From: Polaromonas sp.
Lineage (GTDB): Bacteria > Pseudomonadota > Gammaproteobacteria > Burkholderiales > Burkholderiaceae_C
Reading direction: 5' to 3'
NCBI GenBank assembly: GCA_028291985.1
Contig: JAQGNE010000070.1
Coordinates: 1-64,000 of the forward strand
DNA length: 64,000 bases
Shown here piece by piece: positions 8,669-57,189 of the stretch. Each line of letters starts with the position of its first letter. The first letter of the stretch is position 1. The translations under genes and the position numbers were made by a program. The notes beneath the pieces are model-generated. The model worked only from the letters and a program-made list of their open reading frames with translations. It was not told the origin of the DNA and searched no databases.

Positions 8669-9637
8669 ATGCACACCACACACCCGGCCGAATTCGCACC
8701 CACGCACACATCTGAAGTACCGGAATCGGGAATTTCCGAGCTCCAGCATCTCGGCATCATCCGGGTGGCGGGCACCGATGCTGTTCACTTTTTGCAAGGT
8801 CAGCTGACCCAGGACATCGCACTTCTCGGCCAGTCGCAGGCCAGGCTGGCCGCGTTTTGCAATGCCAAGGGCCGTATGCAGGCGAGCTTTGTGGTGTTCA
8901 AACGCAGCGACGAGGAAGTGCTGTTGGTCTGCCACCGGGATATTCTGGCCCAGACCTTGAAGCGACTGAGCATGTTCGTGCTGCGCGCCAAGGTCAGGCT
9001 GACCGATGCCACCGGCGACTTTGTGCTCGCCGGTCTTACCGGAAACGCTATTACTTCAATAGCGGGTAGCCCTTTGAATACCTGGTCTAGAGCCGATTTT
9101 GATGCCAAAACCGTGATCGGGCTGCACCCGACCTGCGGCACGACCCGGGCGTTGTGGTGCGCCCCGTCCGGCACCGCCCTGCCTGCCGCGCCTTCGCTGG
9201 ATATCGGTACGTGGCAATGGCTCGCAGTGCGTTCGGGAATTGCAATGATCACCCTGCCGGTTTTTGAAGCTTTTGTGCCGCAAATGCTCAACTACGAATC
9301 AGTAGGCGGTGTGAGCTTCAAAAAAGGCTGCTACCCCGGGCAGGAAATTGTTGCGCGAAGCCAGTTTCGCGGCACGCTGAAGCGGCGGGCCTATCTGGCG
9401 CATGGTGCAGAGCCCATGGCCGCCGGGCAGGAAATTTTTCACGCCGGCGACAGGGAACAACCTTGCGGTCTGGTCGCGCAAGCCGCTGCCCATCCTTCGG
9501 GCGGTTTTGATGCGGTGGTGTCGCTGCAGACCGCAGCAGCGGGCGATGCTGCCGACGGCAAGTTGACGCTGGGCTCCGCCGCCGGCCCAGCCTTGAGCCT
9601 GCTGCCGCTGCCCTACCCTTTGCTGGAAGACATCTGA
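8669..9637 (+). CDS. ygfZ: YgfZ/GcvT-domain folate-binding protein
   Basis: 322 residues from ATG 8669 (earlier in-frame starts from 8612 overlap the mltG promoter region). The family signature KGCYPGQEIVAR includes the redox-active Cys of YgfZ, and the N-terminal block is GTDAVHFLQGQLTQDI. YgfZ supports assembly and repair of Fe-S clusters in a folate-dependent way. Residues 127-142 (AITSIAGSPLNTWSRA) are encoded by a complete copy of the 48-nt palindromic element, read in frame, so the protein appears to have absorbed a repeat. The next gene follows after 13 nt. Confidence 0.9.
   Translation: MHTTHPAEFAPTHTSEVPESGISELQHLGIIRVAGTDAVHFLQGQLTQDIALLGQSQARLAAFCNAKGRMQASFVVFKRSDEEVLLVCHRDILAQTLKRLSMFVLRAKVRLTDATGDFVLAGLTGNAITSIAGSPLNTWSRADFDAKTVIGLHPTCGTTRALWCAPSGTALPAAPSLDIGTWQWLAVRSGIAMITLPVFEAFVPQMLNYESVGGVSFKKGCYPGQEIVARSQFRGTLKRRAYLAHGAEPMAAGQEIFHAGDREQPCGLVAQAAAHPSGGFDAVVSLQTAAAGDAADGKLTLGSAAGPALSLLPLPYPLLEDI
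9047..9094 (+). repeat. 48-nt palindromic element, inside ygfZ
   Basis: Left arm GCTATTACTTCAATAGC, then a 20-nt middle and right end GGTCTAGAGCC. It starts exactly on a codon boundary and encodes AITSIAGSPLNTWSRA. Same orientation and frame as the copies in the patatin-like and DUF934 genes and one of the two in imuB. Confidence 0.75.
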
Positions 9638-9650
9638 GCCGCTTTGCGTC

Positions 9651-10565
9651 ATGTGTCTGATCGCTTTTGCCATAGGCGCCTCAACCCGCTGGCCGCTGGT
9701 CGTAGCGTCCAACCGCGATGAATTTTTCAACCGCCCCACGCTGGCGCTGAGCCAGTGGCGCAGCACTGGCCAACACGCCATCGTGTCGGGTCGGGACCTC
9801 CAGCAAGGCGGTACTTGGCTGGGCGCCACGCCGACCGGACGGGCAGCCTGGCTCACCAATGTGCGGGAAGCTGATCCGCTGCCAGCGCCCGCTTCCCGGG
9901 GTGAACTGGTGCTGCGCTGGCTGGAAGGCTGCATGTCAGCGGCCGATTTCATGAGGCAGCTCGATCCCGCTATTTACGGCGGCTTCAACCTGGTGCTGGG
10001 CGACCTGCAAAGCAGCAGCTGGACCTGGCTAAGTAACCGGCGCTTTAGCGCCAACCCGTCAGCGTCCCATACTCCAGTGGCGGGTTGGGTATCGAAAACA
10101 CTGCTGCCTGGCATTTATGGGCTGTCTAATGCCGCACTGGATTCTCCCTGGCCGAAAACACTGTTGCTGAAACATGCGCTTGGCCTGGCCTTGCGGACCG
10201 CCACCGATCAAGCCGATCTGGAAAGACCGCTGTGGCAAGCGCTGGCAAACCGCGAACCGGCCCCCGATGCCCTTTTGCCTGCAACCGGACTGCCGATGGA
10301 GCTGGAGCAGGCGCTGTCCAGTGCGTTCGTCGAATTGCCGCAGCGCGGAACTGCTGGCTATGGCACGCGCTGCAGCACGCTGCTCATTGCCGAGGTGGAG
10401 CCTGACGCGCGGGGTGTATTACCCGTACCGTCCGCTCAGCGTCTGCCCTGGACGATCCGGCTGGAAGAGCGCACCTGGCCAACGCCTGCGGATGAGGCCT
10501 CAGCGATGGCCGGCGCGGGTAGAACCATCAAGACAGGCTTCACGTGGCGACACGCGGCTGAGTAG
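9651..10565 (+). CDS. NRDE/TANGO2-family protein
   Basis: 304 residues beginning MCLIAFAIGA with the namesake NRDE motif in VVASNRDEFFNRPT and an N-terminal Cys2 typical of Ntn-hydrolase-like folds. Further family marks are GRDLQQGGTWLG and AWLTNVREADP, with RTIKTGFTWRHA-like residues at the end. Members are conserved from bacteria to human TANGO2; the molecular role is unsettled (heme trafficking or lipid homeostasis have been proposed). It probably shares a transcript with ygfZ (13-nt gap). Confidence 0.88.
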   Translation: MCLIAFAIGASTRWPLVVASNRDEFFNRPTLALSQWRSTGQHAIVSGRDLQQGGTWLGATPTGRAAWLTNVREADPLPAPASRGELVLRWLEGCMSAADFMRQLDPAIYGGFNLVLGDLQSSSWTWLSNRRFSANPSASHTPVAGWVSKTLLPGIYGLSNAALDSPWPKTLLLKHALGLALRTATDQADLERPLWQALANREPAPDALLPATGLPMELEQALSSAFVELPQRGTAGYGTRCSTLLIAEVEPDARGVLPVPSAQRLPWTIRLEERTWPTPADEASAMAGAGRTIKTGFTWRHAAE

Positions 10566-10595
10566 CCGGTCGCAAGCAGCCAGATCCCCCTGCTA

Positions 10596-12920: not shown

Positions 12921-13024
12921 TACAAAATATTGTCTTTCGCGAACGCGTTATGGGTTTGCCTGTCATCACAACAGGAGATTGTCGCTGCGACAAGCCCCGC
13001 ATTTGCATAAGCAGATAAACCGGC

Positions 13025-13996: not shown

Positions 13997-14192
13997 AAGG
14001 CAGCGTCAACGAAAGAACAGGCTGACCCGACACGCAGTAAAAACGATACCAACGCGGCCGAAACAAGGGTTTGCTTGCAAATCACAAAGGGCTTCCAGCT
14101 AGTACAGTGAACAGCTAAGCGGGCTTTTTCGCAGAACCGGATAAGACTCTGCTGATTCGATGGCATCGTACAACGGCGAAGGACAGCGACCC

Positions 14193-15329: not shown

Positions 15330-15349
15330 CCGCGATGCAAGGGCTGTGA

Positions 15350-17553: not shown

Positions 17554-17592
17554 GGTGTGCTTGTCGGGACTGAGCGAAAGGTCAGTGTATAC

Positions 17593-17640
17593 GCTATGCT
17601 TTAAGGAGCTATCAGACCTTTTGGCTGCTGGGCCAGACGC
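17593..17640 (+). repeat. Degenerate 48-nt palindromic element
   Basis: GCTATGCTTTAAGGAGC as left arm and GGGCCAGACGC as right end, with the same spacing as other copies. It lies between the patatin-like gene and tex. The match is weak and rests on spacing. Confidence 0.4.
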
Positions 17641-17695
17641 CTTTTTTATGCGAATAATTCGCTTCTACGCCGGCTGGGTCTTGAAACAGCGATGG

Positions 17696-20940: not shown

Positions 20941-21202
20941 CGGTTCCGCCAGCGTAAATCTTTAGCCCTGCTCCTTGGCGGGCCTGCAAAGGGGTAAACA
21001 TTGGCCGTAAGACGTTGAGGGTGGAGGAGACAACCTATGGCTGGAGACACCGTCTACCGCTCTCCTTGTCATCCCCATCCTTTGCGAGAAGTCCGTGATT
21101 TTCCCCGCTCCTTTCTCCTGCCTGCAGTACGCAGGGGCGATCTGCTGGCCCTCGCAATCTCGACAATGTCGTCACGGCATCAGCTCGACGCGTCGGAAGT
21201 AT

Positions 21203-21250
21203 GCTACTTAATTAATAGCGATATCAGGTCTTCTCATAGGGGCTAGCGGC
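21203..21250 (+). repeat. 48-nt palindromic element
   Basis: Left arm GCTACTTAATTAATAGC, right end GGGCTAGCGGC, intergenic. Confidence 0.75.
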
Positions 21251-21498
21251 CTGTTTTCCAAAATAAACCAGTGCTCGATCTTGTCCGGACCGTTGATCAC
21301 GCCGGCTGTCGGGCAGTACGCCTCCGAAGGCTGCAGCTCATGCCCTCCCGCTGACAAATGAGCATCGTCGCTGAAGGGTGGCGGTGCGGTCGTATAAGCT
21401 TCCAGATGAGCTACCGGGACTACATCGTCTGGTCGACCGCTTTGCCTCGCCTGCCTACGCCCAACGCCAGCGCGCCGCCGCAGCCGCACGCGCTGCGC

Positions 21499-21532
<34 letters not shown>

Positions 21533-26202: not shown

Positions 26203-27534
26203 GTGACATTGCATACCCTACTCCCCCCTTCCCGCAAATGGCTATCTGCCTTTTTCCCTGTCATCCATTTCCTCATATCTGCAACTGTTCTGATGCTTGT
26301 GCTTGTGCCTGTGCTGCAGGCGCAAGCGCAGACCTCCACAACGCCCACGACGCCCGCCACCGCCTGCAGCAGCTCGCTATGGGTTGGCGGCAAAACCTAT
26401 GCCGCTGGCAGCGTGGTGGTGTACAGCGATGGCAACCGCTATATCGCCAAGATTGCCAACGCGGGCTACAACCCGACGATCAGCACCCATTACTGGTCAA
26501 GGTATATTTGCTCCACGCCGGTGGTGTCACCCGTCCCGCCGCCAGCGCCACCGTCGGCGCCTGTACTTGGAGCCGGCTGCAGCAGCACACCCTGGACAGG
26601 CGGAAAAGCTTATCCGGCTGGCCAGGTCGTCAGCCACGCCAATGGCAGCACCTACATCGCCAAATACGCCAACCCCGGCTACAACCCGACCGTCAGCACC
26701 TATTACTGGGCACCCTACACCTGTGCGGCATCCGCGCCAGCGCTGCCGGCCTGCAACAGTTCGAATTGGGTGGGCGGCAAGGCCTACAGTGCCGGTCAGG
26801 TGGTGTCGTATAACGGTGGCAGCAAATACATCGCCCGGTACGCCAATGCGGGGTTCAACCCGACGGTCAGCACCTTTTACTGGGCACGCCATACCTGCAC
26901 CGAGGCCGCGCCGCTTGTCAGCCCGGGCACCTGGGCCGTTGTGGGTTCGTCCACCGCCGCAGGCTGCTGCCCCCTGGTATCCGACTGGGTCAGGCTGGTT
27001 CGCCAGACCTATGCCAGCCGCGCGGTGGACATCGTGAACTTTGCCAAGGGTGGAACCAGCAGCTATGTGGGTCTGCCTGCAGAGAGCCTGCCGGTGCCCT
27101 ACCGCCCGTTGCCTGACCCTTTGCACAATATCGATGCCGCGCTGGCGCGCACACCCAAGCTTGTCCTGCTGTCCTATCCCAGCAACGACATTGACTCCGG
27201 TTTCAGTGTGGATGAGGTGGTGCGCAACCTGCTGGCGACTCGTTCAAAAGCACTGGCCGGCGGTGCGGCGGTGATTATGCTGTCGACCCAGCCGATGAAT
27301 TTTCCGCCTGAAAAATTGAGGCAGCTTGAACAGATCGACGAGCGCCTGCAGGCCGCCGCGCCGCAGTGTTTTGTCGCCTTGCGCAAGGCAATGGCAGCGC
27401 CTGACGGCACGCTTGCCAAGATCTACGACTCCGGCGACAGACGGCACCCCAACGATGCCGGTCATGCGCTGATCAGGGACAAGATCGTCAGCCTGATCGA
27501 CGGCGGCCAGTGCGTGCGTGTACCGCCGGCCTGA
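26203..27534 (+). CDS. Secreted SGNH hydrolase with three N-terminal carbohydrate-binding modules
   Basis: 443 residues. A signal peptide (core FLISATVLMLVLVPVL, then QAQAQ) is followed by three near-identical modules of about 49 residues, each bounded by a Cys pair: C55-C103, C126-C174, C184-C232. Each has the pattern W-GG--Y-AG-VV-Y---YIAK-ANPGYNPTVSTYYW, typical of CBM5/12 chitin-binding modules. The C-terminal 200 residues form an SGNH/GDSL domain with VVGSSTAAGCC (nucleophile block, Ser250 expected), SYPSNDID (Asn328) and DRRHPNDAGH (Asp412 and His415). The nucleophile block is GSS, not GDS. It probably deacylates a polysaccharide such as chitin-like material outside the cell. GTG start at 26203; no neighbour suggests a pathway. 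Confidence 0.85.
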   Translation: MTLHTLLPPSRKWLSAFFPVIHFLISATVLMLVLVPVLQAQAQTSTTPTTPATACSSSLWVGGKTYAAGSVVVYSDGNRYIAKIANAGYNPTISTHYWSRYICSTPVVSPVPPPAPPSAPVLGAGCSSTPWTGGKAYPAGQVVSHANGSTYIAKYANPGYNPTVSTYYWAPYTCAASAPALPACNSSNWVGGKAYSAGQVVSYNGGSKYIARYANAGFNPTVSTFYWARHTCTEAAPLVSPGTWAVVGSSTAAGCCPLVSDWVRLVRQTYASRAVDIVNFAKGGTSSYVGLPAESLPVPYRPLPDPLHNIDAALARTPKLVLLSYPSNDIDSGFSVDEVVRNLLATRSKALAGGAAVIMLSTQPMNFPPEKLRQLEQIDERLQAAAPQCFVALRKAMAAPDGTLAKIYDSGDRRHPNDAGHALIRDKIVSLIDGGQCVRVPPA

Positions 27535-28297: not shown

Positions 28298-31200
28298 TCA
28301 ATGAAAATCCCGGCTCGATGTGCCCAGCCGCCCTAGCAGCGGTGTCAGATCTTCCAGCCGGTGCGCCACCAGGTTGCGAACAGCGCCGTAGCCTTTTTCA
28401 CAGCCGTCTTCCTCGCTGCGCTGCCATACGCCGTATACCGCCAGCAGCCTGGCATGCAGCACTTCATGGCGCTGGGTTTCACGCAGCGATTTCCAGATGA
28501 TGACATTGACCGAACCGGTCTCGTCTTCCATCGACAGGAAAATCGTGCCTTTGGCGGTTTGGGGCTGCTGGCGCATGGTGATGATGCCGCAACTCGCCAC
28601 TTTTTCACCATCGGGCAGCGTATTCAACTGGCCTGCACTGAGCAGGCCTTTGCCGGCCAGCCGCGGCCTTAGCAAGGCCAGTGGGTGCCGGCGCAGGGTG
28701 AGACCGGTCGACCTGTAGTCAAACAGGATGTTTTCCCCTTCAGGGGTGGGCGCCAGGGCCAATGCGGTTTCATGTATCGGCACCGCCTTGAGCAGGCCTG
28801 GCGCGGGCTTGATGGCCGCGGCTTCCCAGACCTGCTGACGCCGGTGACCCGCCAGCGGCAGCAAGGCATCGGCAGCAGCCAGGGTTTTGATCTCCAGTAC
28901 GTTCAGCCGGGCCCGCGAAACCAGGTCTTCAGTCGATGTAAAAGGCGCTTCGGCTCTTGCCTTGACCAGCCGCAAGGCCGCGGCTTCAGGCAAGCCGGCC
29001 ACCAGGCGCAGGCCCAGGCGCACGGCAGGCTGAGGGTCCCGGATGCCAGGGTATTTTTTTTGGGTTGCGGGCTGCTCCTCACATCGTTCGGGTTGGGCTG
29101 CCTGAATGCTTTCGGCAGCCTCAAAACGATCGGACGAGGTTTCAGAAGCACCAAGCGGAAGAACAGGCTCCAGCGTGCAGTCCCATTCACTGGCGGTCAC
29201 GTCCACCGCCTTCACCTCGATGCCGTGTCGGCGCGCATCCTGCACCAGCTGCGAGGGCGCATAAAAGCCCATGGGTTGCGAGTTGAGCATGGCGGCCACA
29301 AAGCAGGCAGGCTCATGGCACTTGAGCCAGCAGCTCACATAAACCAGCTTGGCAAAACTGGCGGCGTGGCTTTCCGGAAAACCGTACTCGCCAAAGCCTT
29401 CGATCTGCTTGAAGATGTTTTCGGAAAACGCCCGCTCATAGCCTTTTTCGATCATGCGGTTGACCAGCCGCTTGTAAAACCGGTGCACGCCGCCCTTGCG
29501 CTTCCAGGCCGCCATCGAGCGGCGCAGGTCGTCGGCCTCATCGGCCGAAAAATCAGCCGCAGTCATGGCAATCTGCATGACCTGCTCCTGAAAGATCGGC
29601 ACCCCCAGCGTGCGGCCCAGCGCTACCTTCAGTTCAGGGTATTGAAAAGGTATCTCGCCGCCGTTCCTCACAATCTCGCGGTTCTTCAGATACGGATGTA
29701 CCATGCCACCCTGAATCGGGCCGGGCCTGACGATGGCGACTTCCACCACCAGGTCGTAATACTGACGCGGCTGCAGGCGCGGCAGCATGGACATCTGGGC
29801 ACGGCTTTCGATCTGGAACACGCCTACCGTGTCGGCCTCGCAGATCATGTCGTAGGTTTGCCGGTCTTCCCCGGGAATGGTGTGCATCTCCAGGCAGCCG
29901 CCACGGGTCTGGTCCACCAGATGCAGCGCACGGCGTATGGCCGACAGCATGCCAAGGGCCAGCACATCGACCTTGAGCAGGCCCACGTCGTCCAGGTCGT
30001 CTTTGTCCCACTGGATGATGCGGCGGTCCACCATCGACGCGGGCTGGATCGGCACCAGCCGGCTCAGCTTGCCCTGCGTCAGCACAAAGCCGCCAACATG
30101 CTGGCTGAGATGGCGCGGAAATCCCGGGCGCTCCTTGTCGCGCTTGCGGCCATCGTCTGCCTGGGCAATCTCGTCCTGGCGGCTGGGGTACACCGCCAGC
30201 AGCAGACGCGACAGCTCCAGCCACTGCAGCACCGGGCCGATCTCATGCTGCCGGCCGGCTTCTTGCAGCTTTTGCTCCAGCAAGCCGCTGCCGTCAAACC
30301 AGAAATGCTCACTGGCAAACTGCTCGACCAGTTCGGTGGCTATGCCCAGCGCCTTGCCGACATCGCGGATGGCGCTGCGCGAGCGGTAGCTGATCACCGT
30401 GGCGGCAATGGCGGCGCGGTCATGGCCGTACTTGTTGTAGATGTACTGGATGACTTCTTCGCGCCGCTGATGCTCGAAGTCCACATCGATGTCGGGTGGC
30501 TCTCGCCGTTCGCGGCTTATGAAGCGCTCAAACAGGGTGTCCAGCTCGTTCGGGTTTACTGCCGTGATGCCCAAGCAATAACAAACCGTGGAATTAGCGG
30601 CAGACCCGCGTCCCTGGCAGAGGATGCCCTTGCTGCGCGCAAACGCCACGATGTCCTGCACCGTGACGAAATACATCTCGTACTGCAGCTCCTCAATCAG
30701 GTCCAGTTCCTTGTCGAGGCTGGCCTGGATTTTGGGAGGAATGCCGCCCGGGAACCTTTCCCGCGCGCCGGCTGCCGTGAGCCGGCGCAGGCAGGCAGCA
30801 GGGCTTTCATCACGCGGCACGATGCTGTCCTGCGGATAGCGGTAGAGGTCGCGGATCTCGTCCAGGTTGAAGCTGCAACGCCCCGCCACCTCAAGCGTTG
30901 CCCGCAACAACTTCGCCGGGTAGATGCTGCTCAGGCGCATCCGCGGACGCAGGTGGGCCTCGGCATTGGCCTGCAGCTCGAAACCGCATTCATGCACGGT
31001 CTTGCCGAGCTTGATGGCGGTCAGCACGTCATGCAGCGGCTTGCGCGATCGGATGTGCATCAGCACCCTGCCCGCCGCCACCAGGCGGATGCCGCTGCGC
31101 TGCCCGATGCTCTGCAACTGCTGCAGCCGCAAGGCATCGTCCATCTCTTGCAGCAGCTCCACGGCCAGCCATGAATGATGGCCAAAAAGGCCTTTTGCCC

Positions 31201-31684
31201 AGGTGCAGACGGCGTTTAGCGCTTCGGTATCGATAGCCGCCGACAACGGAGACAACATGATTTCACACGCCGCCAGGACGGAAAAATCGGTTTCGTCCCA
31301 CACCGCGCGGTAACTGCCTTTTTCGAGCGCATCCCCCGCCTGCCGGACAGCAGTGATGAATTCGCAGAGGTTACCCCAGCCGGCAGCGTTATGCGGCAAC
31401 ACCACCAGCCGGAAAGGCCCGCCGGTTTTTTGACCGGGCTGCACCAGAAATTCTGCGCCCGGAATCAGCTTGAAGCCCAGCTGCTTGGCCGCCACATGCG
31501 CACGCACCACGCCAGCAACCGAACATTCGTCGGTAATGGCAATCGCGCGGTAACCGAGCTGGGCTGCGCGCTCCACCAGTTCGTGGGCATGCGAGGCACC
31601 GCGCTGGAAGCTGAAATTGCTCAGCGCGTGCAGCTCTGCGTAATCGGGCAACTGAAGGGTTTGCGGCAAGGCGTCCGGGAACAT
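28298..31684 (-). CDS. dnaE2: Error-prone DNA polymerase DnaE2 (ImuC)
   Basis: 1128 residues of the C-family polymerase alpha type. Order: PHP domain (YAELHALSNFSFQRGASHAHELV at the start), palm with the catalytic motif PPDIDVDFEHQRR, fingers segments such as FQIESRAQMSMLPRLQPRQ, helix-hairpin-helix region, and a C-terminal OB fold (GIITMRQQPQTAKGTIFLSM). It lacks the long C-terminal tau-binding tail of DnaE1. It performs translesion extension in SOS mutagenesis with ImuA and ImuB. ATG 31684 is 8 nt after the imuB stop. A Gln/Glu-rich insert around residues 850-880 is unusual and looks like a flexible linker. Confidence 0.95.
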   Translation of the reverse strand: MFPDALPQTLQLPDYAELHALSNFSFQRGASHAHELVERAAQLGYRAIAITDECSVAGVVRAHVAAKQLGFKLIPGAEFLVQPGQKTGGPFRLVVLPHNAAGWGNLCEFITAVRQAGDALEKGSYRAVWDETDFSVLAACEIMLSPLSAAIDTEALNAVCTWAKGLFGHHSWLAVELLQEMDDALRLQQLQSIGQRSGIRLVAAGRVLMHIRSRKPLHDVLTAIKLGKTVHECGFELQANAEAHLRPRMRLSSIYPAKLLRATLEVAGRCSFNLDEIRDLYRYPQDSIVPRDESPAACLRRLTAAGARERFPGGIPPKIQASLDKELDLIEELQYEMYFVTVQDIVAFARSKGILCQGRGSAANSTVCYCLGITAVNPNELDTLFERFISRERREPPDIDVDFEHQRREEVIQYIYNKYGHDRAAIAATVISYRSRSAIRDVGKALGIATELVEQFASEHFWFDGSGLLEQKLQEAGRQHEIGPVLQWLELSRLLLAVYPSRQDEIAQADDGRKRDKERPGFPRHLSQHVGGFVLTQGKLSRLVPIQPASMVDRRIIQWDKDDLDDVGLLKVDVLALGMLSAIRRALHLVDQTRGGCLEMHTIPGEDRQTYDMICEADTVGVFQIESRAQMSMLPRLQPRQYYDLVVEVAIVRPGPIQGGMVHPYLKNREIVRNGGEIPFQYPELKVALGRTLGVPIFQEQVMQIAMTAADFSADEADDLRRSMAAWKRKGGVHRFYKRLVNRMIEKGYERAFSENIFKQIEGFGEYGFPESHAASFAKLVYVSCWLKCHEPACFVAAMLNSQPMGFYAPSQLVQDARRHGIEVKAVDVTASEWDCTLEPVLPLGASETSSDRFEAAESIQAAQPERCEEQPATQKKYPGIRDPQPAVRLGLRLVAGLPEAAALRLVKARAEAPFTSTEDLVSRARLNVLEIKTLAAADALLPLAGHRRQQVWEAAAIKPAPGLLKAVPIHETALALAPTPEGENILFDYRSTGLTLRRHPLALLRPRLAGKGLLSAGQLNTLPDGEKVASCGIITMRQQPQTAKGTIFLSMEDETGSVNVIIWKSLRETQRHEVLHARLLAVYGVWQRSEEDGCEKGYGAVRNLVAHRLEDLTPLLGRLGTSSRDFH

Positions 31685-31692
31685 GCAGAGCC

Positions 31693-33144
31693 TCAGGCAA
31701 AAAAGCCGTGCAGGTACCAGTCATGGCGCTGTGCCTGTAACGGGGCTTGCGTATCCGGCAAGACCAGCCGGACGCTGTAAATCCACAGCAGGCTGCCGCG
31801 CTCGTTGCGGTAGATGTAGTAGTCGCGCATCGCCGGCGGCGTCTGGCGTCTGGCATGCGCCTGATGGGCATCTTCAGTGAGCGCAAGCCAGCCAGTGGCT
31901 TCCAGCCGCTGAGGTCCGGCCAGACGCAGCAGCCTGCCCTGGTACAGCGGGTTGTTGCCGGTGACAGCCAGCCTCAAGGGCTCGGGCAACAGCCAACTGG
32001 GGTAAAGCGCTTCAACCCGGTTGTTGTCTGAAAAAGGCAGTGTTTTTAAGTCTTTTTTGCCTCTAGCCCTTTTGATATCAGTGCTTATAGCTATTGATTT
32101 AATAGCGTTTTGCGCCGGCACCCAGCGCTGCATCCGTTCAGGCCGGTGGTCGGCGGCGGGCTGCCAGGCCTGCACCTGCGCCTCGCCCAGGCGCGCGCTC
32201 AGGCGTTCGATCAGTTCAACGAGGCTGCCGCCCTGCTTGCCCTCTTTCATCAGCAAGCTGGCAGTGGCATCGGCGGCATCGCCCAGTGGTTCGGTCACCA
32301 GCGACAGCAGGCTCAGCGAATGCACCGGCGCTGCCAGCTGGTGCCGAGCCAGGTGTTCGGCAACCAGCCGCGCCACATGCTGCAGGGCTTGTGCAGGCTG
32401 GGCGGTTCGTATCTCCAGTTCGCCAGTAGGCGGCACATCCTTTCGCTTGTCGAGGTGCCAGATGAGCCTGAGTGCGCTCAGCCCGCTTTGCCGGCCCAGC
32501 AGCCAGGCCTGCAGCCGGGTCAGCAGGCGTTGCACGCCAGCCATCAGCGCCGGCGCATGGACGACCAGCGCCTCCAGCTCGATCTTTTCCTCAAACTGAT
32601 CTGGCAGCGTCTGCCAGGGGTAGTCATCGGCTACCGCGCCGCGGGCCCGGTCCAGCGCTTCCAGAAGTTCGGCGCCGAAGCGCCGGGCTACGCCGTCACG
32701 CGGCAGGCGCAGCAGGTCATCCCAGGTGCGGCAGCCGATGCGCTCCAGCACGCCCAAGTGCGGCCGAGCAGCGCTCAGGGTATGCATGGGCAGGTTTGCA
32801 ACGCGTGTTTTTGCCGTGGCACCGGGACCATCGAGCTGCTGGCGCAGCCGTGCAATCGCTATCAAGGATGTAGCGCCATACCTTTGATTTATATGGGCTA
32901 TAGCTTGATTTGACTCAAAAAAATCAAGCAGACGGGCTTGCAGCAGCTGGGTCAGGCGCGTCAAGTCGCCAAACAGCCGCAGGCTACCGGTCACGTCCAC
33001 CAGCACGGCCTCATCCAGCAGCGTCACTCGCGGGGAAAAGCCCAATGCCACGCTGGCCACCGCCTGCTGCACCGCGGCGGGCTCCCACAGATCCTGCCCG
33101 GCCTCAATGGTGATCGAGATGTGCAAGGCGATCCAGCAGCGCAT
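31693..33144 (-). CDS. imuB: ImuB, catalytically inactive Y-family polymerase-like protein
   Basis: 483 residues from ATG 33144, which lies inside the end of imuA (41-nt overlap). The N-terminus WIALHISI lacks the metal-binding Asp of active Y-family enzymes, as expected for ImuB, which bridges DnaE2 and the beta clamp. Other marks: LLDEAVLVDVTGSLRLFGD and the C-terminal RDYYIYRNERGSLLWIYSVR. Two copies of the 48-nt palindromic element are inside the gene. Residues 80-96 (around QAIAHINQRYGATSLIA) come from a reverse-oriented copy, and residues 347-362 (AIKSIAISTDIKRARG) from a same-oriented copy. Both keep the frame open. The operon is imuA-imuB-dnaE2. Confidence 0.92.
   Translation of the reverse strand: MRCWIALHISITIEAGQDLWEPAAVQQAVASVALGFSPRVTLLDEAVLVDVTGSLRLFGDLTRLTQLLQARLLDFFESNQAIAHINQRYGATSLIAIARLRQQLDGPGATAKTRVANLPMHTLSAARPHLGVLERIGCRTWDDLLRLPRDGVARRFGAELLEALDRARGAVADDYPWQTLPDQFEEKIELEALVVHAPALMAGVQRLLTRLQAWLLGRQSGLSALRLIWHLDKRKDVPPTGELEIRTAQPAQALQHVARLVAEHLARHQLAAPVHSLSLLSLVTEPLGDAADATASLLMKEGKQGGSLVELIERLSARLGEAQVQAWQPAADHRPERMQRWVPAQNAIKSIAISTDIKRARGKKDLKTLPFSDNNRVEALYPSWLLPEPLRLAVTGNNPLYQGRLLRLAGPQRLEATGWLALTEDAHQAHARRQTPPAMRDYYIYRNERGSLLWIYSVRLVLPDTQAPLQAQRHDWYLHGFFA
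32059..32106 (-). repeat. 48-nt palindromic element, inside imuB
   Basis: On the minus strand: left arm GCTATTAAATCAATAGC, right end GGGCTAGAGGC. It starts on a codon boundary and is translated as AIKSIAISTDIKRARG. Confidence 0.85.
32858..32905 (+). repeat. 48-nt palindromic element, inside imuB, opposite orientation
   Basis: On the plus strand: left arm GCTATCAAGGATGTAGC, right end GGGCTATAGCT. The host gene runs on the minus strand, so this copy is read through its complement and still adds 16 codons without a stop. Confidence 0.75.
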
Positions 33145-39949: not shown

Positions 39950-40523
39950 GTCTGCTCCTGGGTGATGTCAAGCTGTGGATTGTGAAGGCGTTGCTGCTGA
40001 GATCAAAGAAACATATAGCTCTTAATTTATCCCATTAAAAGCATATAAGGATTCTGCGGACTATGCCGTCGGACGCATTCCCTAAAGATGAAGCGAGGCC
40101 GCCACCGGTTGGCCCATACATGCCAGCGGCGTTGGCCCGCAGCAAGACGCAGCAGGTCATGCATCTGCTATTGATTAAATAGCTGCCAACCTTTATATAT
40201 ATTGGGCTATGGCCGTATTTCGTGTAAATTTACCAGCCTGCTACGTGGCACCCGCCATGCATCGATTTCTGCTTCGCGGCGCGTGCACGAACCGGCGGAG
40301 CGCTCGAGGATCGGGTGTCCTTATCCCTCGTCTTTGTAGGTGCGTTGCATGCATCGCAGCCCGAAAGTACCGGCGCCCGCCATCAACGCTGTGCTTGGTG
40401 CTTCGCCTACAACAGCCTACGACCTGGGCTCACGAGCGAAAACGTCGTGTTTGTTCACAGTGCCCGCATGACAACAGCGACTGGCCTGGAACCCTGGACA
40501 CGCATTCTGAAGCGGGTGACCAC
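39950..40523. other. Intergenic region upstream of the YihY gene
   Basis: 574 nt. It holds a 48-nt palindromic element (40167-40214). An open frame in phase with the YihY gene runs back to 40209, but its residues are not family-like and the family start is at 40524. No other gene recognised. Confidence 0.55.
40167..40214 (+). repeat. 48-nt palindromic element
   Basis: Left arm GCTATTGATTAAATAGC, right end GGGCTATGGCC; a clean intergenic copy close to the family consensus. Confidence 0.88.
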
Positions 40524-42132: not shown

Positions 42133-42924
42133 ATGGAGCAGCCGATGAGCGAGCCAGCCAGGCTGGCAAGCCGGCCGTTCCGTTGGGGCCGGTGGCTGCT
42201 GCTGCTGTGGACGCCGCTGCTGGCCATTGTCTATGCCTTCTGGATCGGCGTTCTCACGATTCCGGAGCGTTACAACCCCTACAACCCCTGGGCTCCGCTG
42301 GAGCCGCTGGCCTCGCCTAATGCTCTGACCAGCTACAAGCTTGCCCGTGCCCGCGGCAGCCCCGCCCTGTGCAATCAGGCGCTGGCGCAAACTGGCATGG
42401 ATGTTGAAGCCGTGCCCGATCGGGTCACTGGCCCCTCCTGCGGGTTCGAGAATGCAGTGCGTGTGCGCCAGGCCAACATCACACTGGGCATGCCGCTTAC
42501 CCTGAGCTGCCCGATGGCACTGTCATTGGCGATGTGGGAGCGGCATGCGCTGCAGCCGGCAGCGACGCGTCACTTTGGCGAACCGGTGGCGGGTCTTGAG
42601 CACCTGGGCAGTTATGCCTGCCGCAATGTCAACACGGGCGAAGGTACGGCGCCGCAGGCGAGGCCGGCGCATCGAAGCCGTCATGCCACAGCCAACGCGC
42701 TGGATCTTGCCGGCCTGAAGCTGGCGAGTGGCAGACGCATCACGGTGCTCAGGGATTTTCAGCGCGCGGATGCCAGTGCGCCCGCTACGCCTGAAGCATC
42801 TTTCTGGAAGGACGTCCACGCCGGAGCCTGCCATTATTTCCAGGGAGTTTTGGGACCTGACTACAACGCTGCCCACAGAGACCATTTACACCTTGAAACC
42901 GGCGGCTTCCGTATGTGCCGGTAA
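42133..42924 (+). CDS. Membrane-anchored extensin-like family protein
   Basis: 263 residues. N-terminal transmembrane anchor (WLLLLWTPLLAIVYAFWIGV), then an extensin-like C-terminal domain with CGFENAVRVRQ, LSCPMALSLAMWER, SYACRNVN, SRHATANALDLAG and a final HRDHLHLE. The HATANALD and HRDHLHLE pair resembles the zinc ligands of LAS-type D,D-carboxypeptidases, so a periplasmic peptidoglycan-related activity is plausible. Six or more Cys probably form disulfides. ATG 42145 is an alternative start. Confidence 0.85.
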   Translation: MEQPMSEPARLASRPFRWGRWLLLLWTPLLAIVYAFWIGVLTIPERYNPYNPWAPLEPLASPNALTSYKLARARGSPALCNQALAQTGMDVEAVPDRVTGPSCGFENAVRVRQANITLGMPLTLSCPMALSLAMWERHALQPAATRHFGEPVAGLEHLGSYACRNVNTGEGTAPQARPAHRSRHATANALDLAGLKLASGRRITVLRDFQRADASAPATPEASFWKDVHAGACHYFQGVLGPDYNAAHRDHLHLETGGFRMCR

Positions 42925-42985
42925 GGTAGGCCATATGGCTCAACACGTGGCGCGACATCAAAAGGCAAGGCAAGGTGTCCGTGTC

Positions 42986-43033
42986 GCTATATTTTTAATA
43001 GCTGCAGGCCATTGAATATAATGGGCTTGCGAG
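42986..43033 (+). repeat. 48-nt palindromic element
   Basis: Left arm GCTATATTTTTAATAGC, right end GGGCTTGCGAG; intergenic, before the glutathione S-transferase gene. Confidence 0.65.
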
Positions 43034-43122
43034 TCTTCTGGCTTAAAACAGCTTGCATCGCCCCGGTTGGTATTCAGCACAGCCCGCATGGGCTGCCGTA
43101 GCAACTGCTGCAAAAGGACGGT

Positions 43123-43767
43123 ATGAAACTGATCGGCATGCTCGATTCCCCTTACGTTCGCCGCGTGGCCATCTCGCTTCAACTTCTCGGCCTGCGTTTT
43201 GAACACCAGTCACTGTCGGTCTTCAGCACCTTCGAGGAATTCGCGTTGATCAATCCTGTGGTCAAGGCGCCGTCACTGGTGTGCGACGACGGCCAGGTGC
43301 TCATCGACTCCACGCTCATCACCGACTATGCCGAACTGCTGTCCGCACAAAAGCTGCGGCACAGAACGCTGATGCCAGCCGGGCTCGTTGAGCGTCAACG
43401 GGCAGTGCGCATGATCGGACTGGCGCTAGTAGCCTGTGAAAAAAGCATTCAGATTGTTTATGAACACAAGCTCCGGCCCGCTGAGAAGCTGCATCAGCCC
43501 TGGATTGCACGTGTAACCGCCCAGATGCTGGCAGCCTGCGATGCACTAGAGACCGAAATGGAAAAGCATCCGCTGGCCGTCAGCAGCCACAGCATCAACC
43601 AGGCAGGCATCAGCACTGCTGTGGCCTGGCATTTCATGCAGCAGATGGTGCCAGAAGTGGTGGACGCCAACCAATACCCGCTGCTGTGCGCGTTTTCCGT
43701 GTTGGCAGAAGAGCTTGATGCCTTCAGGGCTGCGCCCCACGGTGCATCAACCTACCGCGACCCCTGA
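43123..43767 (+). CDS. Glutathione S-transferase family protein
   Basis: 214 residues. N-terminal thioredoxin fold MKLIGMLDSPYVRRVAISLQ, with the GSH-contact segments VVKAPSLVCDDG (cis-Pro region) and LIDSTLITDYAE, then an all-helical C-terminal domain. The SPY at residues 9-11 is the usual position of the catalytic Ser. AAGGACG precedes the ATG. Substrate is unknown. Confidence 0.88.
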   Translation: MKLIGMLDSPYVRRVAISLQLLGLRFEHQSLSVFSTFEEFALINPVVKAPSLVCDDGQVLIDSTLITDYAELLSAQKLRHRTLMPAGLVERQRAVRMIGLALVACEKSIQIVYEHKLRPAEKLHQPWIARVTAQMLAACDALETEMEKHPLAVSSHSINQAGISTAVAWHFMQQMVPEVVDANQYPLLCAFSVLAEELDAFRAAPHGASTYRDP

Positions 43768-47516: not shown

Positions 47517-47606
47517 CGCTGCAGCCTGCCCGGCACTGGCCCCCAACGCAGGGTTATCAACTGCGTCCGCGCCAGGGCCAGCTTGACGATTGTTGAGATG
47601 AAGGCG

Positions 47607-50104: not shown

Positions 50105-50140
50105 AAGTTTCTTCTTTTGAGGGCGGCGGGAGTGTCGTTT

Positions 50141-50188
50141 GCTACGAAATCAGTAGCTAAAAACCCTGTATACGAAAGGGCTATAGGC
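50141..50188 (+). repeat. 48-nt palindromic element
   Basis: Left arm GCTACGAAATCAGTAGC, inner CCC-GGG stem, right end GGGCTATAGGC. It sits just upstream of the broken mop gene. Confidence 0.85.
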
Positions 50189-50264
50189 TTGTTTGGTGTA
50201 TGAAAGTTGTCAGATCGCCCAGCGGAGCCCTTGTACCGGCGTGGGCAATTACGACGAATTCGGT

Positions 50265-50800: not shown

Positions 50801-50924
50801 AGCAGCACCTAGGCTTCTGTGGACATCATTTCCTAGGGTTTTACGTGACGTGTCGTGGGTAGTAGCCATCGGCTGCCGCCCAGCTGCAGCAACGCAACCC
50901 AGTCGCGACAGGGGTCTCAGGGGC

Positions 50925-51953: not shown

Positions 51954-52100
51954 GGCTTGCCTTCAGGGTAAGAATAGGCGGCGGTAGGAGTTATCGCCTG
52001 CAGAGCGCCGATTCTGAAAGCAGGTCTTCAAAACTGGAAATAATACAAATTCAGTTCTTTATAAGATATTGAATCTAACAAATACCGGGTAACTCATCAC

Positions 52101-52373
52101 ATGGCACGTACCGTTAAATGCATCAAGCTGGGAACCGAAGCCGAGGGGCTGGACTTCCCGCCCTATCCCGGACCGCTGGGCAAGCGCATCTGGGAGGAGG
52201 TCAGCAAGCAGGCCTGGGCAGACTGGATGAAACAGCAAACCATGCTGGTCAACGAAAACCGTCTGAACCTGGCCGATGCGCGGGCGCGTCAGTACCTGGC
52301 CAGACAGATGGAAAAGCATTTCTTCGGCGACGGCGCCGATGCGGTGCAGGGCTATGTTCCGCCAGCTGCCTGA
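52101..52373 (+). CDS. yggX: YggX-type iron trafficking/oxidative damage protection protein
   Basis: 90 residues, matching the family closely: [51 protein letters not shown] and MEKHFFG. It binds Fe(II) and protects Fe-S enzymes from oxidants. Fe-S-rich sulfur assimilation enzymes are encoded just downstream. mnmC starts 8 nt after its stop. Confidence 0.95.
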
Positions 52374-52381
52374 CACAAGGA

Positions 52382-54310: not shown

Positions 54311-54384
54311 ACCGTCTGCAACCGCACCGGACGAGCGAAATCAGGGGAATCGCAGACGCCATTTGATGCACATCAACTTCTTCA

Positions 54385-54396
54385 AATAAGCTTATT
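54385..54396. promoter_or_regulatory. 12-bp perfect palindrome upstream of tauE-cysI
   Basis: AATAAGCTTATT lies 64 nt before the TauE-family gene, in an AT-rich patch, with TTTCTATAAG further downstream. It could be part of a LysR-type (CysB-like) regulatory site for the assimilation cluster; evidence is position only. Confidence 0.3.
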
Positions 54397-54459
54397 GGCA
54401 TATGGGCACAACGATTTTGTAGTTTGTTTCTATAAGCAGACGCCCTACATTGCGGTGCT

Positions 54460-55251
54460 ATGCATGAATACGCCTTTGTGATCGCCGGTTTTGCGGTTGG
54501 CCTGATAGTGGGTCTGACCGGCGTCGGCGGCGGCTCCCTGATGACACCCCTGCTCATCTTCGTGTTTGGCGTCAAACCGCATCTGGCCATCGGCACCGAC
54601 CTGTTGTTTGCCGCCTTCACCAAGATGGGCGGCACCATCAGCCTGGCGCGCGCCCGCGTGATCGACTGGCGCATCGTCGGCCAGGTAGCCGCTGGAAGCA
54701 TACCTGCAACTTTGATCACCCTGTACTTTTTGAAGAGCGTGGGCCCCGCCAATCCGCAGACGCAGTCGTTGATGACGACCACCCTGGGACTGGCATTGCT
54801 TCTGACGGCGGCGGCAACCTTGTACAAGGCTCTTCGCGGAAAGGCAGCGCCCACCCGTATCGCACCGGAGCTTCTACCCCAGGCGACACGCTCGCGCCAT
54901 TGGGCGCTTCCGGTGGTGTTCGGTGCAGTCATCGGCGTGCTGGTGACGCTGACGTCCGTGGGCGCTGGCGCCATTGGCGTGATTGTGTTGATGCTGCTCT
55001 ATCCCGCCCTGCCCCTGCCGCGTATTGTGGCGGCTGACATTGCCCATGCCGTGCCTTTGACCCTGGTGGCGGGCCTGGGTCACGCCTCCATCGGCTCGGT
55101 CGACTGGCCGCTGTTGGCCAAGCTGCTGGTGGGCTCGCTACCCGGTATCTGGCTGGGCTCCTATTTGATGCACAAAACGCCGGACCGGGTGATTCGCTCG
55201 CTGTTGTCAGTATTGCTGGCCTACGCAGGCGTGAAGCTTATTTCGATATAG
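54460..55251 (+). CDS. TauE/SafE-family sulfite/organosulfonate exporter-like protein
   Basis: 263 residues, about eight transmembrane helices. Family marks: GFAVGLIVGLTGVGGGSLMT near the start, HLAIGTDLLFAAFTK, and the second-half repeat VTLTSVGAGAIGVIVLMLLY. It probably exports sulfite or a related anion, which fits its place directly upstream of the sulfite reductase gene (40-nt gap), where it would relieve sulfite build-up. The direction of transport is inference. Confidence 0.9.
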   Translation: MHEYAFVIAGFAVGLIVGLTGVGGGSLMTPLLIFVFGVKPHLAIGTDLLFAAFTKMGGTISLARARVIDWRIVGQVAAGSIPATLITLYFLKSVGPANPQTQSLMTTTLGLALLLTAAATLYKALRGKAAPTRIAPELLPQATRSRHWALPVVFGAVIGVLVTLTSVGAGAIGVIVLMLLYPALPLPRIVAADIAHAVPLTLVAGLGHASIGSVDWPLLAKLLVGSLPGIWLGSYLMHKTPDRVIRSLLSVLLAYAGVKLISI

Positions 55252-55291
55252 TCACCAGCGATTTCGCCCCCACGCCACTTTTACCTGACTT

Positions 55292-57133
55292 ATGTACCAA
55301 TACACAGAATTTGACCGCCAGTTTGTCAAGGCCAGAGCCAATCAGTACCGGGACCAATTAAGCCGCTGGCAAGCCGGCCTGCTACCGGAAGACGAGTTTC
55401 GCCCCTTGCGCCTGCAGAACGGCTGGTATGTGCAGCGCTACGCACCCATGCTGCGGGTGGCGGTGCCTTATGGCGAGCTTTCAAGCACGCAGTTACGGGC
55501 GCTCTCCACCATCGCGAGCCAGTATGACCAGCCCGACACGGCGCTTTTCAAGCGCGCCCAGGCAGCCCAGGACGAGTTGGGAGACATTCCGCTCGATGAC
55601 GGGAAGTCTGTCAAAACAAACCTGACCAAGGGTTATGCGCACTTCACTACCCGCCATAACGTTCAGTACAACTGGATTCCGCTAGACAAATCTGCCGACG
55701 TGATGGACCTGCTGGCCAGTGTCAACATGCATGGCATCCAGACCAGCGGTAACTGCATCCGCAACATCACCAGCGACGAGCGCGCCGGCATTGCGGTTGA
55801 CGAGATCGCCGATCCGCGGCCGTTTGCGGAAATCATGCGCCAGTGGAGCACGCTTCACCCGGAGTTCGCGTTCTTGCCGCGCAAGTTCAAGGTAGCTATC
55901 ACCGGCGCAACTGAAGACCGGGCTGCGACCGCATGGCATGACGTTGGCCTGCATCTGGTCAAAAACGCTTCAGGAGAATTGGGCTTCAAGGTGCTGGTGG
56001 GCGGTGGCATGGGCCGCACGCCTATCCTGGGCATGGAAATTCGCAGCTTTTTGCCGTGGAACCAGATCCTCAACTACCTCGAAGCCATTGTTCGCGCCTA
56101 CAACCGCTTTGGCCGTCGGGACAATATCTACAAGGCTCGCATCAAGATTCTGGTCAAGGCAGAGGGCCAGCAATTTGTTGACCAGGTCGAGGCCGAGTAC
56201 CAGGACATTCTTCAGATTGACGGCGCGCCGCACACCATCACCCCGGCAGAACTGGCGCGGGTGTCGGCATCTTTTGTCGAGCCTGACCTGACTTCCCTGC
56301 ATGCAAGTCTGAAGGGCGCACCTCCTGCTGCAGCTCCGGTGGCAGCTGCCGACAACACCGAGTATTCCCGCTGGCTGAAGCAAAATGTGGCGCCCCACAA
56401 AAACCCTGAGTTGCGCATTGTGACGCTGTCGTTCAAGCGTCTGGGCCAGGCCCCTGGTGACGCCACGGCAGACCAGCTGAAGCTGGCGGCTGACCTGGCC
56501 GACCAGTTCAGCGCCGGCGAAGCGCGGGTCACGCATGACCAGAACCTGGTGCTGCCGTGGGTACATCAGGCGCAGCTGACGGCGCTGTGGGAGGCCGCTC
56601 GCAAGGCCGGTTTTGCACGCGCCAACATCCGGCTGCTGACCGACATGATCGCCTGCCCCGGCGGCGATTTTTGTTCGCTGGCCAATGCGCGATCGTTGCC
56701 ACTGGCTGAAGCCATCACCCGCCGCTACCAGGACCTGGACGAACTGCACGACCTGGGTGAGATCGACCTGCATATCAGCGGTTGTATCAACTCGTGTGGC
56801 CACCACCACAGCGGTCATATTGGCATTCTGGGCGTCGACAAGGATGGCAAGGAGTGGTATCAGATCACGCTCGGCGGCTCTGATGGGTCGCTGCTGTCGG
56901 GAGCGCCCGCCACCGGCAAGGTGGTTGGGCCTTCGTTTTCGGCTGCTGAAGTGCCGCATGTGATTGAAGCCGTGCTCGAGACCTACCGCGAACTGCGCCT
57001 GCCCGCCGACGGCAGGCAGGAAACATTCATCAGCGCCCTGCGTCGGCTGGGCGCTGATCCCTTCAAGGCCGCCGCCAATGGTGTGCGCTTTGCCGCAGCG
57101 GCCAGTCCGATAGCTGAAGCGCAAGTCGCGTGA
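55292..57133 (+). CDS. cysI: Assimilatory sulfite reductase hemoprotein (nitrite/sulfite reductase family)
   Basis: 613 residues. Two ferredoxin-like half domains surround the siroheme and 4Fe-4S site. Cluster/siroheme cysteines are in IACPGGDFCSLANARS and SGCINSCGHHHSGHIG. The substrate-site basic residues are expected in the KTNLTKGYAHFTTR and NIKTSGN-like TSGNCIRNIT regions. It reduces sulfite to sulfide with six electrons. No cysJ flavoprotein is nearby, so electrons probably come from ferredoxin; fdxA and a ferredoxin-NADP reductase lie 4 kb downstream. The next gene starts at or just after its stop. Confidence 0.93.
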   Translation: MYQYTEFDRQFVKARANQYRDQLSRWQAGLLPEDEFRPLRLQNGWYVQRYAPMLRVAVPYGELSSTQLRALSTIASQYDQPDTALFKRAQAAQDELGDIPLDDGKSVKTNLTKGYAHFTTRHNVQYNWIPLDKSADVMDLLASVNMHGIQTSGNCIRNITSDERAGIAVDEIADPRPFAEIMRQWSTLHPEFAFLPRKFKVAITGATEDRAATAWHDVGLHLVKNASGELGFKVLVGGGMGRTPILGMEIRSFLPWNQILNYLEAIVRAYNRFGRRDNIYKARIKILVKAEGQQFVDQVEAEYQDILQIDGAPHTITPAELARVSASFVEPDLTSLHASLKGAPPAAAPVAAADNTEYSRWLKQNVAPHKNPELRIVTLSFKRLGQAPGDATADQLKLAADLADQFSAGEARVTHDQNLVLPWVHQAQLTALWEAARKAGFARANIRLLTDMIACPGGDFCSLANARSLPLAEAITRRYQDLDELHDLGEIDLHISGCINSCGHHHSGHIGILGVDKDGKEWYQITLGGSDGSLLSGAPATGKVVGPSFSAAEVPHVIEAVLETYRELRLPADGRQETFISALRRLGADPFKAAANGVRFAAAASPIAEAQVA

Positions 57134-57141
57134 AAGAAAAC

Positions 57142-57189
57142 ACTATGAAATTGATAGCTGCAACCCCTGGAGAAACAACGGCTGAGGGC
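57142..57189 (+). repeat. 48-nt palindromic element, supplying the 5' end of the DUF934 gene
   Basis: Arm ACTATGAAATTGATAGC (first base diverged), then a 20-nt middle and right end GGCTGAGGGC. The ATG at 57145 lies inside the arm. The element is in the same orientation and frame as the copies in ygfZ and the patatin-like gene. Confidence 0.65.

What the first reader, a model, noticed from the sequence alone, without database searches (positions are those of the whole stretch)
9047..57189. Coding insertions share one frame and orientation: a 16-codon portable peptide
Elements in ygfZ, the patatin-like gene, imuB (copy at 32059) and the DUF934 gene are all in sense orientation and all read in the same frame, giving A-I-x-S-I-A at the start and a small residue at the end. 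Length 48 is a multiple of three and this frame has no stop. The bias could reflect selection for the tolerated frame, or an element that evolved to be translatable.
Basis: partly seen in the sequence, partly recalled or inferred. Interest (0 to 1): 0.8.

Follow-up and report, generated by a model that had tools for sequence, protein, structure and literature searches.

The report
Long DNA tag scattered through genomes
What looked like a small portable peptide pasted into genes is a roughly 69-letter DNA signal repeated hundreds of times in this bacterium and kept at matching places in related genera, possibly as a self-recognition tag for taking up DNA.

Summary
The repeats are real but are not a one-frame portable peptide. 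The 48-bp element is the core of a ~69-bp motif (58.9 bits). The window holds 16 copies; a strict pattern finds 259 in the genome against 4 in the reversed control. The window's second imuB copy is antisense.

No two sampled copies exceed 80% identity, as for independent draws from one profile. A model of this clade's variant matches 44 of 120 sampled genomes of the family and misses 76. At six genes (RarA, RsmB, UbiA, Pgi, YgfZ, patatin-like), 29 of 41 orthologous sites in motif-bearing genomes fit the motif better than all 300 synonymous recodings, against 0 of 29 in motif-free genomes. At UbiA, RsmB, RarA and LigA the motif lies in native sequence without inserted residues; at Cca and the patatin-like gene extra residues are present.

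Best reading: a DNA recognition motif kept at DNA level, with peptide and frames as by-products. A role like DNA uptake sequences is my leading but unproven guess.

The parts
5141..5209 (-). motif copy, intergenic
   Evidence: 47.9 bits with a profile built outside the window
8132..8200 (-). motif copy inside mltG (YceG family), sense, frame +1
   Evidence: 26.9 bits; Pfam YceG, NCBIfam MltG; frame
   Evidence: 54.2 bits; YgfZ by NCBIfam; orthologous copies in 4 of 7 motif-bearing genomes
17589..17657 (+). motif copy between the start of the patatin-like gene (17553) and the next long ORF (17696)
   Evidence: 42.6 bits; ORFs
21199..21267 (+). motif copy, not inside a called coding ORF
   Evidence: 49.6 bits
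24283..24351 (+). motif copy, not inside a called coding ORF
   Evidence: 63.3 bits
27549..27617 (+). motif copy between ORFs ending at 27534 and 27626
   Evidence: 65.3 bits; ORFs
31173..31241 (-). motif copy inside dnaE2, sense, frame +0
   Evidence: 17.5 bits, the weakest in the window; orthologs: P. jejuensis 48.2 bits, other genera up to 50.0 bits; error-prone DNA polymerase
32854..32922 (+). motif copy inside imuB, site 2, antisense, frame -1
   Evidence: 48.5 bits; copies at the same place in Polaromonas and other genera, L159 57.6 bits
40163..40231 (+). motif copy upstream of and overlapping the ORF start at 40209
   Evidence: 75.3 bits; ORF
42982..43050 (+). motif copy between ORFs ending at 42924 and starting at 43123
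   Evidence: 55.7 bits; ORFs
50137..50205 (+). motif copy, not inside a called coding ORF
   Evidence: 60.6 bits
   Evidence: 60.0 bits; Pfam DUF934; ORF 57130-57546
62542..62610 (-). motif copy, not inside a called coding ORF
   Evidence: 65.6 bits

Best explanation
It is a long (about 69 bp) DNA recognition motif, not a translated element. It has a 17-bp palindrome GCTAY-N7-RTAGC, a second block round a clade-variable centre, and two A/T tracts. Shown: hundreds of copies in the genome on both strands; copies at orthologous positions in other genera, inside genes as well as between them in this genome; conservation at DNA level beyond what the protein requires at six genes. Inferred: a trans-acting protein recognises it, and many copies arose by substitution in place. 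Coding copies sit mainly in two reading frames that the motif often leaves open and that give mild residues (AIxSIA from either strand), so the frame bias is a by-product. Most likely role (inferred, about 35-40%): a self-DNA tag like the DNA uptake sequences of Neisseriaceae and Pasteurellaceae, kept by selection and/or uptake-biased recombination. Next most likely: a binding site of a chromosome-organising protein. The confidence given is for the DNA-motif reading, not for the uptake role.
For: Sharp family: 209 copies at 8 bits, 198 at 25 bits, none in reversed sequence; the leave-out profile gives 16 window copies. Genome-wide pattern 259 hits against 4, recall 127 of 204 sampled copies. 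No subfamilies: highest pairwise identity 0.80; column-permuted copies average 0.76, at most 0.80, over 20 permutations. 44 of 120 genomes of the family, own genome included, match at E <= 0.001; 16 reach the limit of 47 scored matches, 6 have only 1 or 2; 76 have none. Orthologous coding sites: 29 of 41 in seven motif-bearing genomes beat all 300 synonymous resamples, 0 of 29 in five motif-free genomes; median z 5.5 against -0.4. No inserted residues: LigA, RarA, Pgi, RsmB against solved homologs; UbiA identical in length in all 12 genomes; RsmB equal in 7 motif-bearing and 2 motif-free genomes, the other 3 motif-free longer; RarA of the four non-Polaromonas motif-bearing genomes occupied at the site as long as in four of the five motif-free ones. 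Clade variants of the centre, also at one orthologous imuB site. No significant replichore strand bias among 150 hits in G136, p=0.14. No full-length match in the phage collection. Parallel: Redfield et al. 2006 applied the same gap test to USS and concluded that they are not insertions (PMC1626085, section read).
Against: Extra residues where the motif is: Cca +16, ThiL about +7, PepN +4, FolC +4; patatin-like gene 17-20 and Pgi 5-12 more than in motif-free genera, although Pgi is gap-free against solved homologs; YgfZ ranges from 10 more to 17 fewer residues than motif-free genera. Polaromonas RarA has 3 and Polaromonas imuB 7 extra residues at the edge of the motif, absent from other motif-bearing and motif-free genera alike. 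So insertion stays possible at some sites. 12 of 41 orthologous sites in motif-bearing genomes do not beat the resamples: 11 look empty, RarA of G126 is intermediate. Length and information (59-64 bits) are far above the 10-12 bp uptake sequences. ComEC is found in 117 of 120 genomes irrespective of the motif; motif-bearing G082 (26 matches) and G076 (1 match) have none. No binding protein was found. 'Motif-free' means no match to a model of this clade's variant under stricter filters.
Confidence: 0.8

Rival explanations
1. The motif is the binding site of a chromosome-organising or other DNA-structuring protein. Palindrome and A/T tracts would be wrapped or bent; loss of the protein explains genera without motif.
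For: Palindrome and A/T-tract anatomy, with some spectral power near 10.5-11 bp; hits spread over the G136 chromosome; constraint at DNA level; clade variants suggest co-evolution with a binder.
Against: Information content is about four times what locating some 400 sites needs (my estimate); spectral power is higher near 7.75 bp than near 10.75 bp; no candidate protein.
Confidence: 0.35
2. It is an old dispersed element (of the kind of Rickettsia palindromic elements) that inserted long ago and has been inherited since, with host proteins adapting round it.
For: Extra residues at Cca (+16) and the patatin-like gene (17-20); coding copies mostly in open frames; orthologous positions also fit vertical inheritance.
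Against: No extra residues at UbiA, RsmB, LigA, and at RarA outside Polaromonas; only 5 of 209 copies lie between 8 and 18 bits, so few decayed or truncated ones are seen; no pair above 80% identity; some columns near-invariant while others are free, unlike neutral decay.
Confidence: 0.12
3. One reading: an element that evolved to be translatable, a 16-codon portable peptide.
For: Two frames hold 34 of 41 coding copies.
Confidence: 0.03
4. REP-type sequence spread by a RAYT (Y1) transposase.
For: A 70-bit copy ends 65 bp upstream of the Y1 ORF of the own genome; from the tables, 39 of 44 motif-bearing genomes have a Y1 match against 50 of 76 others (Fisher p=0.009, relatedness ignored).
Against: Round 20 Y1 genes of motif-bearing genomes I found 10 matches above 5 bits in 46.5 kb (0.22 per kb; 9 of 20 loci), close to the window's 16 in 64 kb, though about twice my genome-wide estimate for G000; motif-bearing G060 (46 matches) and G132 (26) have no Y1 match; no recent copies.
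Confidence: 0.05

Closest known systems
Uptake signal sequences (USS) of Pasteurellaceae
   Same: Highly overrepresented in the genome, flanking A/T-rich repeats, clade-specific variants, origin by substitution shown by gap tests (PMC1626085, abstract and one section read); in and between genes, one orientation more frequent in reading frames (PMC2346458, abstract and Findings read).
   Different: USS core is 9-10 bp; this motif is ~69 bp and ~59 bits with a 17-bp palindrome. Function in uptake is untested here.
DNA uptake sequence (DUS) of Neisseriaceae and its dialects
   Same: Genome-wide tag with dialects that follow the phylogeny (PMC3630211, abstract read).
   Different: The DUS is 12 nt (PMC2346458); no receptor or uptake test here; other family of bacteria.
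Rickettsia palindromic elements (RPE)
   Same: Dispersed palindromic sequence present in frame inside coding genes (PMC10969869, passages read).
   Different: RPE are ~150-bp insertions that encode a conserved peptide; here several strong sites show no insertion, antisense copies are as common, and no recent copies were seen.
REP/BIME and MITE elements
   Same: Short dispersed palindromic DNA, hundreds of copies.
   Different: No near-identical copies in the sample, and copies lie at orthologous coding sites across genera; a link to Y1 transposase is unclear.

Membership tests
DNA uptake sequences (DUS/USS) | Hundreds to thousands of copies, both orientations, round the chromosome | tested here: met
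   259 strict-pattern hits, 137 forward and 122 reverse, against 4 in control; the 150 best hits in complete G136 show no significant replichore strand bias
DNA uptake sequences (DUS/USS) | Arise by substitution in native sequence, not by insertion | tested here: met
   Met at several, not all, sites: of 8 comparisons with solved homologs 4 have no extra residues, 3 have 4-7, 1 has 16; in family alignments UbiA and RsmB have none, RarA none outside Polaromonas, patatin-like gene and Pgi do
DNA uptake sequences (DUS/USS) | Clade-specific variants (dialects) | tested here: met
   Centre of the motif differs between G000, G136, other Polaromonas and other genera
DNA uptake sequences (DUS/USS) | Short core of about 9-12 bp | tested here: not met
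   Conservation from -4 to +65, 58.9 bits
DNA uptake sequences (DUS/USS) | Tied to competence genes | tested here: inconclusive
   Only ComEC was tested: 117 of 120 genomes have it regardless of motif; motif-bearing G082 and G076 have no match
DNA uptake sequences (DUS/USS) | Raises uptake or transformation by DNA carrying it | not testable with these tools
   Needs a transformation assay
Rickettsia palindromic elements | In-frame insertion visible as a gap in homologs | tested here: not met
   No gap at UbiA, RsmB, LigA, RarA outside Polaromonas; gap-like at Cca and patatin-like gene
Rickettsia palindromic elements | One conserved peptide in the coding copies | tested here: not met
   Two main frames on opposite strands, 16 and 18 of 41
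MITE or REP element | Families of closely similar copies from recent spread | tested here: not met
   20706 pairs of 204 sampled copies, highest identity 0.80, as in column-permuted copies
MITE or REP element | Association with a RAYT/Y1 transposase gene | tested here: inconclusive
   No clear excess round 20 Y1 genes; Y1 somewhat more frequent in motif-bearing genomes, 39 of 44 against 50 of 76, but missing in motif-rich G060 and G132
Structured RNA | Compensatory pair changes or Rfam match | tested here: not met
   Predicted 5-pair stem has no both-side changes in 12 copies; no stem-like covariation among 204 copies; no Rfam match in the window at gathering thresholds

The most novel reading that the evidence does not exclude
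A further, independently evolved genome-wide self-recognition signal of DNA uptake, in Polaromonas and related genera (Comamonadaceae; the family name is recalled), with a 69-bp motif far longer than the uptake sequences I know of, maintained inside housekeeping and DNA-repair genes across genera.
Probability: 0.35. Interest if true: 0.92.

Novelty: new variant of a known kind. Interest (0 to 1): 0.76.

Why it matters
A 69-bp motif kept at DNA level inside conserved proteins across genera is a strong, unexplained constraint on bacterial chromosomes. If it is an uptake signal, it is a new case for how bacteria tell self DNA from foreign DNA and how such signals spread; if it is a structural site, it points to an unknown chromosome-organising protein. 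Its patchy presence (44 of 120 sampled genomes) should make the partner protein findable by gene-content comparison. It also shows that a repeat inside genes need not be an insertion.

Tried and rejected
Considered and rejected or weakened: structured RNA or hairpin; replication-polar signal of the KOPS/Chi type (no significant replichore bias); RAYT/REP (the copy beside the own Y1 gene looked striking, 20 other loci showed no clear excess, but Y1 presence leans to motif-bearing genomes); phage-borne element (the patterns of 54 and 56 were strict and of another clade's variant, 14 viral contigs matched); competence gene profile (ComEC only), uninformative because nearly universal. Literature searches for repeats or uptake sequences in this family listed nothing on this motif as far as titles and abstract starts show; most subscription journals are not in that library.

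Limits: the 204 copies come from stretches fetched round the 150 best model hits (the scoring limit) and 12 palindrome hits, so they lean towards strong copies, and 41 of 204 is not an unbiased coding fraction (in the window 7 of 16 touch a coding gene, 8 with the ORF start at 40209). Coding status rests on my own dicodon score, not on a gene caller. The six genes were chosen because the own genome has the motif there; orthologs were picked by protein similarity. In one search the printed best scores are for whole loci, some 3 kb long, and can come from a neighbouring copy; site-restricted numbers are those. Presence of copies in DNA repair genes (imuB twice, dnaE2, ligA, rarA) was not tested against a background. 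On re-checking I withdrew an earlier statement that imuB site 2 is gap-free: Polaromonas has 7 extra residues at its edge.


Full report
Setting. The window is 64 kb of a 3.58-Mb draft genome in 94 contigs. The three named relatives found are Polaromonas.

The element. Twelve window copies aligned without gaps over 55 positions. A model from them gave 150 hits in the own genome, the number scored, 146 of them exactly 55 nt and all with E of 1.2e-5 or less. I took stretches round these and 12 palindrome hits and built a profile: 204 distinct copies, with a clean floor (209 at 8 bits, 204 at 18, 198 at 25) and no hit in reversed sequence. Conservation extends from about -4 to +65, so the motif is about 69 bp. 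Consensus in this genome: ATTTGCTATTtAATTAATAGCTAcAAcCCCTTGTATTTAATGGGCTAGAGGCATATTTTATTTAAAAAT, 58.9 bits; the complete relative G136 has 64.4 bits from 50 copies. With a profile from 188 copies outside the window, the window holds 16 copies (17.5-76.7 bits); the reversed window reaches 3.0. A strict pattern finds 259 hits in the genome against 4 in the control; it recovers 127 of the 204 copies and 10 of the 16 window copies, so I estimate some 400 copies; the window is richer than average.

Of 204 copies 41 lie inside ORFs with coding flanks: sense frame 0, 16; antisense frame 1, 18; antisense frame 0, 3; sense frame 1, 3; antisense frame 2, 1. Both main frames give A-I-x-x-I-A or near it because the 17-base palindrome reads in the same register on either strand; in sense copies it comes first, in antisense copies last. 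Among the 163 other copies the 48-nt core is stop-free in 93 (sense 0), 81 (antisense 0), 73 (antisense 1), 32 (sense 2), 4 (antisense 2) and 3 (sense 1). Openness explains why sense frame 1 and antisense frame 2 are rare, but not why antisense frame 0 is; residue tolerance may.

Not recent copies. Among 20706 pairs the highest identity over 69 positions is 0.80; permuting columns gives 0.76 on average and at most 0.80. The observed spread is wider than permuted (sd 0.069 against 0.054), which I read as copies differing in overall strength. No pair of columns shows the covariation of a stem.

Orthologous positions. The two imuB copies and the dnaE2 copy are found at the same places in three other Polaromonas, at 10.3 to 48.2 bits; three of the nine matches are below 25 bits. 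imuB site 2 and the dnaE2 site also score in other genera (L159 57.6, L169 50.0, L166 42.4 and others). For RarA, RsmB, UbiA, Pgi, YgfZ and the patatin-like gene I compared seven motif-bearing genomes with five motif-free ones. In a window of aligned codons round each site, 29 of 41 orthologs in motif-bearing genomes score above all 300 synonymous resamples of the same peptide with that genome's codon use; 0 of 29 do in motif-free genomes. By gene: patatin-like 6 of 6, RarA 6 of 7, RsmB 5 of 7, UbiA 4 of 7, Pgi 4 of 7, YgfZ 4 of 7. Of the 12 others 11 score like the motif-free ones and one (RarA of G126) is intermediate. Codon use was estimated from these few ORFs, motif codons included, which should make the test conservative. 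The profile used was the mean of those of G000 and G136.

Insertion or native sequence. Against solved homologs the motif adds no residues in LigA, RarA, Pgi and RsmB, 4 in PepN, 4 at its end in FolC, about 7 in ThiL and 16 in Cca. In family alignments UbiA has the same length in all 12 genomes; RsmB in the 7 motif-bearing and 2 motif-free genomes, the other 3 motif-free being longer; RarA has 3 extra residues in the three Polaromonas genomes only, so that motif-bearing G154 and G155 are as long as four of the five motif-free ones (the fifth has one residue more). The patatin-like protein is 17-20 and Pgi 5-12 residues longer than in motif-free genera; YgfZ varies both ways. imuB site 2 has 7 extra residues at its edge in Polaromonas, while motif-bearing L157-L159 and L161 have the length of motif-free L171 and L182; dnaE2 differs by 1 to 5 residues from most motif-free proteins; imuB site 1 lies in a linker of variable length. 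So the motif is written into native sequence at several strong sites and may have come with extra DNA at others. Redfield et al. made the same test for Haemophilus USS, found gaps in 115 of 474 alignments and concluded that USS are not insertions (PMC1626085, section read).

Distribution. With a model of this clade's variant and stricter filters, 44 of 120 sampled genomes of the family, own genome included, match at E <= 0.001: 16 at the limit of 47 scored, 6 with one or two matches only; 76 have none. A strict pattern gave 18 of 41 genomes in another draw, all of the own genus. In complete G136 the 150 best hits cover the chromosome, with 5 between 2.25 and 2.70 Mb; strands by half are 37+/49- and 36+/28- (p=0.14). 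Plasmids: 5 records match, of which Diaphorobacter and Polaromonas naphthalenivorans cover at least 80% of the query, Delftia half, and two Proteus records (E=6) look like chance. Phages: 9 records, none covering 80%. Viral contigs: 0 with one strict pattern, 14 with another.

Clade variants. With the centre masked during detection, columns 23-41 read cCCCTTGTATttAaTGGGC in this genome (202 copies), GCCCAtGtgctgatTGGGC in G136 (58), GCGCCCGTCcGGcaTGGGC in other Polaromonas (20) and GCGCtTatttgaCaaGGGC in other genera (45). At imuB site 2 this genome has its own centre while P. jejuensis has the other, as expected if sites follow a changing recogniser. I have not tested this over many orthologous sites.

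Mechanism. Constraint on DNA, both strands, fixed spacing, palindrome and A/T tracts point to recognition by a protein (inferred). Whether the recogniser imports DNA or organises it is open. For the uptake reading speak the parallels with USS and DUS (copy number, both strands, substitution origin at several sites, dialects, coding frame bias; PMC1626085, PMC2346458, PMC3630211) and copies in imuB, dnaE2, ligA and rarA, since an uptake-sequence bias to genome-maintenance genes is reported (cited in PMC2346458); I did not test enrichment. Against it speak the length and the uninformative competence profile. A Y1 transposase as driver is unlikely but not excluded.

Verdict. The finding as titled does not stand; what lies under it is more interesting. 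I hold the DNA-motif reading at 0.8 and the uptake role at about 0.35-0.4.

Noticed in passing
window 31173-32922: Three motif copies within 1.75 kb of imuB-dnaE2, all with copies at the same places in other species; ligA and rarA of the same genome also carry copies. Enrichment in DNA repair genes was not tested.
   Followed up: partly
G136 (complete Polaromonas genome) 2.25-2.70 Mb: Only 5 of the 150 best motif hits fall in this tenth of the chromosome, which may be an acquired region.
   Followed up: no
L089 2491-2559 (own genome contig C48): A 70-bit motif copy lies directly upstream of the single Y1 transposase match of the own genome; 20 loci in other genomes showed no clear general link.
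   Followed up: yes
G055: 20 Y1_Tnp matches in one genome of the family, several with identical scores: possibly an IS200/IS605-like expansion.
   Followed up: no
window 26360-26886: Three direct repeats of 140 nt at 71-72% identity to the first.
   Followed up: no
L065 2051-3562: Cca-type nucleotidyltransferase: the TINxxA stretch shared with solved homologs forms the start of the DNA motif, and 16 extra residues follow.
   Followed up: partly
L152 10001-11540: imuB of a Polaromonas MAG has no single open frame over the match (7 stops in the range tried); described only.
   Followed up: no
G082: Motif-bearing genome (26 matches, listed as 100% complete) without a ComEC match.
   Followed up: no
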